From assembly GCF_035917335.1 (NCBI RefSeq), contig NZ_CP109067.1, positions 7,377,001-7,441,000 of the forward strand: DNA of 64,000 nt, read 5' to 3'. Position numbers and translations under genes: made by a program. Of the stretch, positions 22,556 to 42,871 are shown piece after piece; position 1 is the stretch's first letter; each line of letters begins with the position of its first letter. This stretch comes from Micromonospora sp. NBC_01813 (GTDB lineage: Bacteria > Actinomycetota > Actinomycetes > Mycobacteriales > Micromonosporaceae). The notes under the pieces were generated by a model, which worked only from the letters and a program-made list of their open reading frames with translations, was not told the origin of the DNA and made no database searches.

Positions 22556-22700
22556 GTTACCTCTCAGTGGGCTTTAGTGAGCGCACGGTTGGTAGTCCTG
22601 CCTTGCGGTAGGACGGTCCCGGTCTGATCCGCTTGAGCGGTGCCGGGTTCACGCTTCACGGCCACCTGCCCGCGTGTGCGGGTCTTCTGGTCGGCTCCAC
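22556..22700 (-). ncRNA. Predicted omega (reRNA) guide RNA scaffold at the tnpB 3' end
   Basis: In IS605/IS607 elements the guide RNA of TnpB is made from the 3' end of tnpB to the right end of the element, and its guide is the flanking DNA. The tnpB stop lies only 8 bases from the right end here, so the scaffold must overlap the tnpB coding end. The 5' limit given is approximate. The guide would begin at the junction with GATGCCCAGACGGTGC of the methyltransferase gene. I did not fold the RNA; this is family knowledge applied to position. Confidence 0.4.
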
Positions 22701-38928: not shown

Positions 38929-42606
<3,678 letters not shown>

Positions 42607-42611
42607 TTGAC

Positions 42612-42726
42612 CACCTCCGTGAAATCCGGAGGCGCCCTTGACCAGTGAGCACGCCCCCGTCGACGCAGGCCGTGACCGCGGCCGAGCGTGGCGGGCATCC
42701 CGCAGCCCGTCGCAGCGCCTCTCGGC
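42612..42726 (-). promoter_or_regulatory. S-adenosylhomocysteine (SAH) riboswitch in the metH leader
   Basis: On the minus strand, CCGAG (42725-42721) pairs with CTCGG (42686-42682) around the conserved AGGCGCTGC and CCACGCTCGG segments and a small inner hairpin, the layout of SAH aptamers. AGGCGC (42720-42715) can form the pseudoknot with GCGCCT (42635-42630). The same region contains CCTCCG (42632-42627), which can instead pair with CGGAGG (42619-42614), the metH ribosome-binding site. SAH binding would therefore free the site and turn translation on, as known for this class. Confidence 0.8.
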
Positions 42727-42871
42727 CTCGGCTGGAGTCTACCCGCGGCCGGCCGGACACACCGGCGGCCACGGGTGTTGCGTTGTTCGCACACCTGTCG
42801 GGTAGCTTCGTTGACCGGCTGGGCCGCCACCGTGCCGGGGCGGCCACCGGACCGACGGGAGTTGTATCGAC

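What the first reader, a model, noticed from the sequence alone, without database searches (positions are those of the whole stretch)
42612..42726. SAH riboswitch of metH with a visible anti-RBS switch
The leader shows the SAH aptamer core (CCGAG/CTCGG stem, AGGCGCTGC, CCACGCTCGG) and a long-range AGGCGC/GCGCCT pseudoknot. The 3' pseudoknot strand overlaps CCTCCG, which can otherwise pair with the CGGAGG ribosome-binding site, giving a direct ON mechanism. A linker of about 45 bases between aptamer and pseudoknot partner is longer than I recall for typical members.
Basis: partly seen in the sequence, partly recalled or inferred. Interest (0 to 1): 0.72.

Follow-up and report, generated by a model that had tools for sequence, protein, structure and literature searches.

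The report
SAH riboswitch controlling metH translation
The leader of this actinobacterial methionine-synthase gene carries a known kind of RNA sensor for S-adenosylhomocysteine that very probably uncovers the ribosome-binding site when its ligand is present; it is ordinary, except that its linker is longer than in its relatives.

Summary
The minus-strand leader of metH (42606..38929) holds an SAH-type aptamer at 42727..42680, a pseudoknot P4 (42720..42715 with 42635..42630) and an anti-Shine-Dalgarno strand (42632..42627) complementary to the ribosome-binding site (42619..42614). Rfam's SAH model scores 27.8 bits, below its cut-off of 37, probably because of the long linker. A model built from 31 other metH leaders scores the window 68.3 bits, E 5.8e-17 in the whole genome; the next place scores 21.2. 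P1, P2 and P4 covary. The anti-SD pairing is complete in 37 of 38 metH leaders and covaries. Best reading: a translational ON switch (SAH binds, P4 forms, the ribosome-binding site is freed). Ligand binding and switching are inferred, not tested. The same element precedes metH or ahcY in many other Actinomycetes, so this is a new member of a known kind. The long linker is real and, in the genomes sampled, confined to this genus: 7 of 7 genus genomes, 0 of 193 others of the family. A P3 hairpin in it is unproven. Interest is low.

The parts
42736..42741 (-). -10-like box TAGACT, 14 bases before P1; transcript expected to begin just before the aptamer
   Evidence: TANNNT in the scanned stretch upstream of P1 in 38 of 38 metH leaders, 11.75% in shuffles. 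No RNA data.
42721..42727 (-). P1 5' strand GGCCGAG
   Evidence: Rfam alignment; covariation of P1 in 31 leaders
42715..42720 (-). P4 (pseudoknot) 5' strand AGGCGC
   Evidence: 2 of 6 P4 pairs show changes on both sides across 31 leaders
42705..42709 (-). P2 5' strand CGGGC
42692..42696 (-). P2 3' strand GCCCG
42680..42686 (-). P1 3' strand CTCGGCC
42636..42679 (-). 44-base linker, genus-specific length; possible P3 hairpin (CACG..CGTG core); its GGGGGCG (42657..42651) can also pair with the anti-SD strand
   Evidence: Long-gap pattern in 7 of 7 genus genomes, 0 of 193 other family genomes. Hairpin in the RNAalifold consensus but no covariation and no folding excess in the window (z +0.34). 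Linker/anti-SD pairing at some fold boundaries.
42630..42635 (-). P4 (pseudoknot) 3' strand GCGCCT; shares bases 42630-42632 with the anti-SD strand
42627..42632 (-). anti-Shine-Dalgarno strand CCTCCG
   Evidence: 6 of 6 complementarity to the SD in 37 of 38 metH leaders; covaries
42614..42619 (-). Shine-Dalgarno CGGAGG, 7 bases before the GTG start
   Evidence: bases 42618-42614 paired with probability 0.96-0.98 in the ligand-free nested ensemble of 42730..42601
38929..42606 (-). metH, cobalamin-dependent methionine synthase, 1225 aa, GTG start
   Evidence: NCBIfam TIGR02082 1561.9 bits, cut-off 1010.85

Best explanation
It is an SAH riboswitch of the RF01057 kind that turns metH translation ON. 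Transcription starts just upstream of P1 (inferred from the -10-like box). Without ligand, the anti-SD strand 42632..42627 pairs with the ribosome-binding site 42619..42614 and blocks initiation (computed). When S-adenosylhomocysteine rises it binds the P1/P2 core and holds the P4 pseudoknot 42720..42715 with 42635..42630 (inferred from the known class). P4 uses three bases of the anti-SD strand, so the hairpin opens and ribosomes reach the GTG start. The cell then makes more methionine synthase, which remethylates the homocysteine released from SAH. The long linker is a genus-specific extension between P1 and P4 that leaves both helices intact.
For: Rfam SAH alignment over P1/P2, 27.8 bits, best RF01057 place in the genome. 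Model R1, built from 31 named metH leaders none of which has the genus's linker, finds the window at 68.3 bits, E 5.8e-17; the next hit, 21.2 bits, lies inside a transporter-like reading frame. P1, P2 and P4 in those 31 leaders: 97.7% of cells paired, 8 of 18 pairs with changes on both sides, 0 of 500 shuffles as high. Within P4, G-C to A-U in two leaders and C-G to U-A in one. Anti-SD:SD complete in 37 of 38 leaders against 245 of 7600 shuffled trials; Watson-Crick cells 176 of 180 in 30 named leaders, best of 5000 permutations 166. Ligand-free nested folds: SD paired above 0.5 in 30 of 30 named and 7 of 7 genus leaders, anti-SD:SD above 0.5 in 29 of 30 and 7 of 7 (L061 and L064 not in that set).
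Against: Rfam gathering score not reached (27.8 against 37), nor in any of the 7 genus genomes. The whole leader does not fold better than shuffles (z -0.55). The predicted OFF pairing of the window depends on where the fold is cut: anti-SD:SD exceeds 0.5 in 11 of 16 boundary choices; it fails when the 3' end is cut two bases after the SD (4 of 4) and for 42740..42601, where the anti-SD strand pairs with the linker instead (0.74; also the minimum-energy fold). P1 has probability of only 0.05-0.20 and P4 0.03-0.04 in the unliganded nested ensemble. One P4 pair is non-standard in L038 and in L064, and L064 fails the anti-SD test. Within the genus nothing covaries: no pair changes on both sides. 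The shuffles and permutations do not keep relatedness. SAH binding, SAM discrimination and ON direction were not measured. The window's core differs from Rfam's consensus at some letters (CCACGCTCGG for CCAGGCTCGG, shared with the four relatives displayed), with unknown effect on affinity.
Confidence: 0.88

Rival explanations
1. SAH aptamer, but the main control is transcriptional or on RNA stability: the anti-SD hairpin, or Rho loading on an untranslated leader, lowers the transcript rather than only blocking ribosomes.
For: One relative upstream of ahcY (L014) continues its hairpin into GGAGGCGCCCTTTT, terminator-like, so the same aptamer can be wired to termination.
Against: The window hairpin is followed by TGGTCAAGTG, no U run; the paired strand is the SD itself in 37 of 38 metH leaders.
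Confidence: 0.1
2. The element binds another or broader ligand (for example SAM as well as SAH) because the actinomycete core and the long linker alter the pocket.
For: Consensus letters differ from Rfam's model in the window and in the four family relatives displayed; the linker is extended in this genus.
Against: Core letters are nearly invariant across 31 metH leaders, and in 26 of 29 family loci the gene downstream is metH or ahcY, the SAH-recycling genes.
Confidence: 0.07
3. A decayed or chance resemblance: GC-rich leader with accidental complementarity and no switching.
For: Below Rfam's gathering score; whole-leader folding energy is ordinary.
Against: E 5.8e-17 with an independent model; motif before metH in 7 of 7 genus genomes; covariation outside the genus.
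Confidence: 0.02

Closest known systems
SAH riboswitch, RF01057 (Rfam 15)
   Same: P1, P2, GCGCUGC core, CCA.GCUCGG, pseudoknot strand after AAGG; sits before a methyl-cycle gene; same ON logic if the class behaviour holds
   Different: 44-base linker; aligned only over model positions 3-49 of 78 and under the gathering score
Actinomycete metH and ahcY leaders with the same element (e.g. L035 Actinoallomurus, L039 Catellatospora, L113 Mycobacterium; family loci L005-L034)
   Same: Same core, same P4, same anti-SD/SD competition in nearly all
   Different: Linker 8-35 bases to AAGG in the 31 named metH leaders, 39-43 in this genus
SAH riboswitches of Proteobacteria (PMC4239095, passages read)
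   Same: Methyl-cycle regulon: ahcY, metF, and in Comamonadaceae metH
   Different: ahcY and metF are the core there; here metH. Whole-genome searches show no hit at the window genome's ahcY, 3266544-3267941
SAM/SAH riboswitch, RF01727
   Same: Also a pseudoknot near a ribosome-binding site (recalled)
   Different: Reported upstream of metK (PMC4239095, passage); no match in the window at gathering or in 42560-42800 up to E 10

Membership tests
SAH riboswitch (RF01057) | Match to the covariance model at the curators' gathering score (37 bits) | tested here: not met
   27.8 bits over positions 3-49 of 78; 0 of 7 genus genomes over the cut-off. I treat this as a detection threshold, not a structural feature. 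16 of 16 family loci re-scanned pass it with a short linker, but they were chosen as the best hits; other short-linker relatives fall below it too (L064, L113; many rows).
SAH riboswitch (RF01057) | P1 and P2 helices flanking the conserved GCGCUGC core | tested here: met
SAH riboswitch (RF01057) | Pseudoknot between the core (AGGCGC) and a downstream GCGCCT strand | tested here: met
   6 of 6 pairs possible in the window; compensatory changes in relatives
SAH riboswitch (RF01057) | Located in the leader of an SAH-recycling or methyl-cycle gene | tested here: met
   metH starts at 42606; TIGR02082 1561.9 bits
SAH riboswitch (RF01057) | Homology to accepted members | tested here: met
   Model R1 from 31 named metH leaders: 68.3 bits; family loci over Rfam's cut-off share core, P4 and anti-SD
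SAH riboswitch (RF01057) | Binds SAH and discriminates against SAM | not testable with these tools
   Reported for the class: 32 nM, about 1000-fold over SAM (PMC7057144, passages); not measured for this RNA
SAH riboswitch (RF01057) | Ligand raises expression | not testable with these tools
   Only the mutually exclusive pairings are shown

The most novel reading that the evidence does not exclude
In this genus the P1-P4 linker has gained a module of about 20-25 bases that tunes the switch: by folding as a P3 hairpin, or by offering GGGGGCG as a third partner for the anti-SD/P4 strand, so that the RNA chooses among three pairings instead of two. It would be a natural linker-length variant of the SAH riboswitch with its own kinetics.
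Probability: 0.12. Interest if true: 0.4.

Novelty: new member of a known kind. Interest (0 to 1): 0.2.

Why it matters
It puts metH under likely direct SAH control across many Actinomycetes and shows that Rfam's cut-off misses this genus (0 of 7 genomes over it), probably owing to linker length. The competition between core, P4/anti-SD strand and SD is visible by covariation, which makes the ON mechanism directly testable with compensatory mutants. Otherwise it is a familiar element.

Tried and rejected
P3 as a proven helix: left unproven. RNAalifold draws it and CACG/CGTG-type blocks are conserved, but no pair changes on both sides, one pair (columns 57/85) is unpaired in 5 of 7 leaders, and of six linkers folded (the seventh, L119, equals L118) only L121 clearly beats its shuffles (z -2.32; the window +0.34).

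A second SAH switch in the genome: the next R1 hit (21.2 bits) lies in a transporter-like frame. No hit at ahcY. One search also shows none there, but it is insensitive: it lists only 2 of 8 loci and misses the window's own element.

MAFFT put the SD out of register in A1, so the anti-SD pairing was counted by script from motif anchors. L064 fails the anti-SD test. L061 lacks the motif. L065 has only 56 upstream bases and cannot be judged. In one search the script took a wrong place in L056; the right one is and was used from then on.

E <= 1 counts with RF01057 are inflated: 4 of 14 control genomes also ring, so I rely on the 59 of 200 over the cut-off. In G105 the metH-leader hit is only its second best. 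The long- and short-gap patterns allow no mismatch and miss divergent copies. The TANNNT stretch was chosen after seeing some leaders.

The founding papers on the class (Mol Cell 2008; RNA 2010) and the 2007 CMfinder paper are not held.

Full report
What was checked. metH runs 42606..38929 with a GTG start and is a clear cobalamin-dependent methionine synthase. P1 is 42727..42721 with 42686..42680, P2 42709..42705 with 42696..42692, P4 42720..42715 with 42635..42630. The anti-SD strand 42632..42627 is fully complementary to 42619..42614, seven bases before the start codon. A -10-like TAGACT lies at 42741..42736, so the transcript probably begins just before P1.

Is it real? At gathering thresholds Rfam gives no SAH hit in the window. 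On the leader alone, RF01057 scores 27.8 bits against a cut-off of 37, E 0.0015, over model positions 3-49 of 78. It is the best RF01057 place in the 7.63-Mb genome; the next has 18.0 bits. I then built a model from 31 named metH leaders, none with the genus's linker. It places the window first in the genome at 68.3 bits, E 5.8e-17; second is 21.2 bits inside a transporter-like frame. Its E-values are rough (short calibration).

Relatives. Of 80 metH loci from named genomes I took 33 (L035-L065, L070, L113) for leader work: 31 carry the element, L061 does not, and L065 is too short upstream. A motif expression run over all loci held gave, among the other 47, only two unconvincing matches (L066, L104). 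All 7 genus genomes have the element before metH; in 6 of 7 it is the best RF01057 hit of the genome, in G105 the second. In the family sample 59 of 200 genomes exceed Rfam's cut-off; 142 of 200 have a hit at E <= 1, but 4 of 14 controls do too. Of the 30 family loci fetched there, 29 fit the script's motif; L032 does not, although Rfam scores it at 39.3 bits. Judged by the start of the reading frame, metH or ahcY follows in 26 of the 29; the others are L008, L015 and L027. I scanned ten of the 29 against NCBIfam: five adenosylhomocysteinase, two methionine synthase (N-terminal parts, so under the full-length cut-off), two adenosine deaminase, one (L008) without a match, which Pfam calls MOSC.

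Structure. Over 31 leaders, 97.7% of cells pair in P1, P2 and P4, 8 of 18 pairs change on both sides, and 0 of 500 shuffles equal any of the five measures; slid registers pair 21-43% of cells. P4 changes as a pair in three leaders: AAGCGC/GCGCTT in L056 and L058, and C-G to U-A in L113; one P4 pair is non-standard in L038 and one in L064. Among family loci, L005 and L010 carry GGGCGC/GCGCCC. Within the genus nothing covaries.

The switch. The anti-SD strand pairs 6 of 6 with the SD in 37 of 38 leaders (31 named plus 7 genus, the window's own among these; exception L064). Shuffling the downstream bases gives this in 245 of 7600 trials. In 30 named leaders 176 of 180 cells are Watson-Crick; permuting SDs among leaders gives 156.5 on average and at most 166 in 5000 trials. 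Types include CCTCCC:GGGAGG, CCTCCG:CGGAGG, CCTCCT:AGGAGG, CTTCCG:CGGGAG and CCTTCC:GGAAGG. P4 and the anti-SD hairpin share bases 42630-42632, so they exclude each other. Computed without ligand and without pseudoknots, for 42730..42601 the SD is paired at 0.96-0.98 and the anti-SD pairs stand at 0.93. Across leaders cut the same way, SD paired exceeds 0.5 in 30 of 30 named and 7 of 7 genus leaders, and anti-SD:SD in 29 of 30 and 7 of 7. For the window this depends on the ends chosen: 11 of 16 boundary pairs give anti-SD:SD above 0.5. The five failures are the four that end two bases after the SD, and 42740..42601, where the linker takes the anti-SD strand (0.74; compare the fold, which starts upstream of the presumed start site). 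The default state is therefore predicted OFF. That SAH shifts it to ON is inferred from the known class (PMC7057144, passages: 32 nM affinity, up-regulation of ahcY).

The linker. Searching with a 36-66 base gap finds 7 of 200 family genomes, exactly the 7 of this genus, and 1 of 394 class genomes, the window's own. The short-gap pattern finds 37 of 394. So the long linker is a genus trait in these samples; two named leaders come near it (L051 31, L070 35 bases to AAGG). It probably explains much of the low Rfam score, since model positions 50-78 are left unaligned, but not all short-linker relatives pass either (L064 and L113). A P3 hairpin in it is possible but unproven.

Prior knowledge. 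[quoted passage not shown] Searches of the held library listed nothing that by title describes the actinomycete metH element; I read listings and passages only, and the founding papers are not held. This is a new member of a known kind with an unusual linker. A family identity for the host (Micromonosporaceae) is a guess from leader resemblance to Catellatospora and is not used in the argument.

Noticed in passing
L061, L066, L068, L072, L073, L165-L183 (e.g. L175:1473-1552 +): Where the SAH element is missing, some metH leaders (mostly Thermoleophilia-type) carry a different conserved motif (ACCYGGA..AGCUUUGA..GGCAGCUUGGCGACCRGG..AAACGCCUAAAGAGCC). CCCGG:CCGGG in 14 and CCTGG:CCAGG in 8 of 23 distinct copies, one without. 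tblastn finds metH downstream in 21 of 24 loci; L166 and L169 are cut too soon, and L183 precedes a gene with a cobalamin-independent-synthase N-domain match. Strict pattern in 2 of 396 phylum genomes, a looser one in 19 of 198 genomes of that class. Rfam: nothing at gathering in the five first loci; L175 gives SAM_alpha RF00521 at 21.6 bits, cut-off 36, E 0.0028, L072 gives no such match. Probably a divergent SAM-II-like riboswitch for methionine synthase.
   Followed up: partly
L015 and L027 (family loci), P4 strand 35 and 50 bases before the start: SAH elements over Rfam's cut-off stand before adenosine deaminase, which would clear the adenosine released by SAH hydrolysis. A library search for SAH riboswitch with adenosine deaminase found 0 papers. 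Their platform lacks the usual full SD match (4 of 6).
   Followed up: partly
L014, downstream of the SAH element: Before ahcY the 3' P4 strand runs into a terminator-like hairpin GGGCGCCTCCGTACCGCGGAGGCGCCCTTTT, suggesting a transcriptional version of the same switch.
   Followed up: no
L008, reading frame 16 bases after the start of the P4 strand: An SAH element over the cut-off (45.5 bits) precedes a MOSC-domain protein.
   Followed up: no
L057 and L059 (Frankia), P2 loop: P2 loop holds an extra GCAACGGGCC stretch resembling the aptamer's own GCAACGG, as if part of it were duplicated inside P2.
   Followed up: no
window 22591-22657 (-): Transposase-2 RNA (RF03015), 70.8 bits, the only Rfam hit over cut-off in the window.
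   Followed up: no
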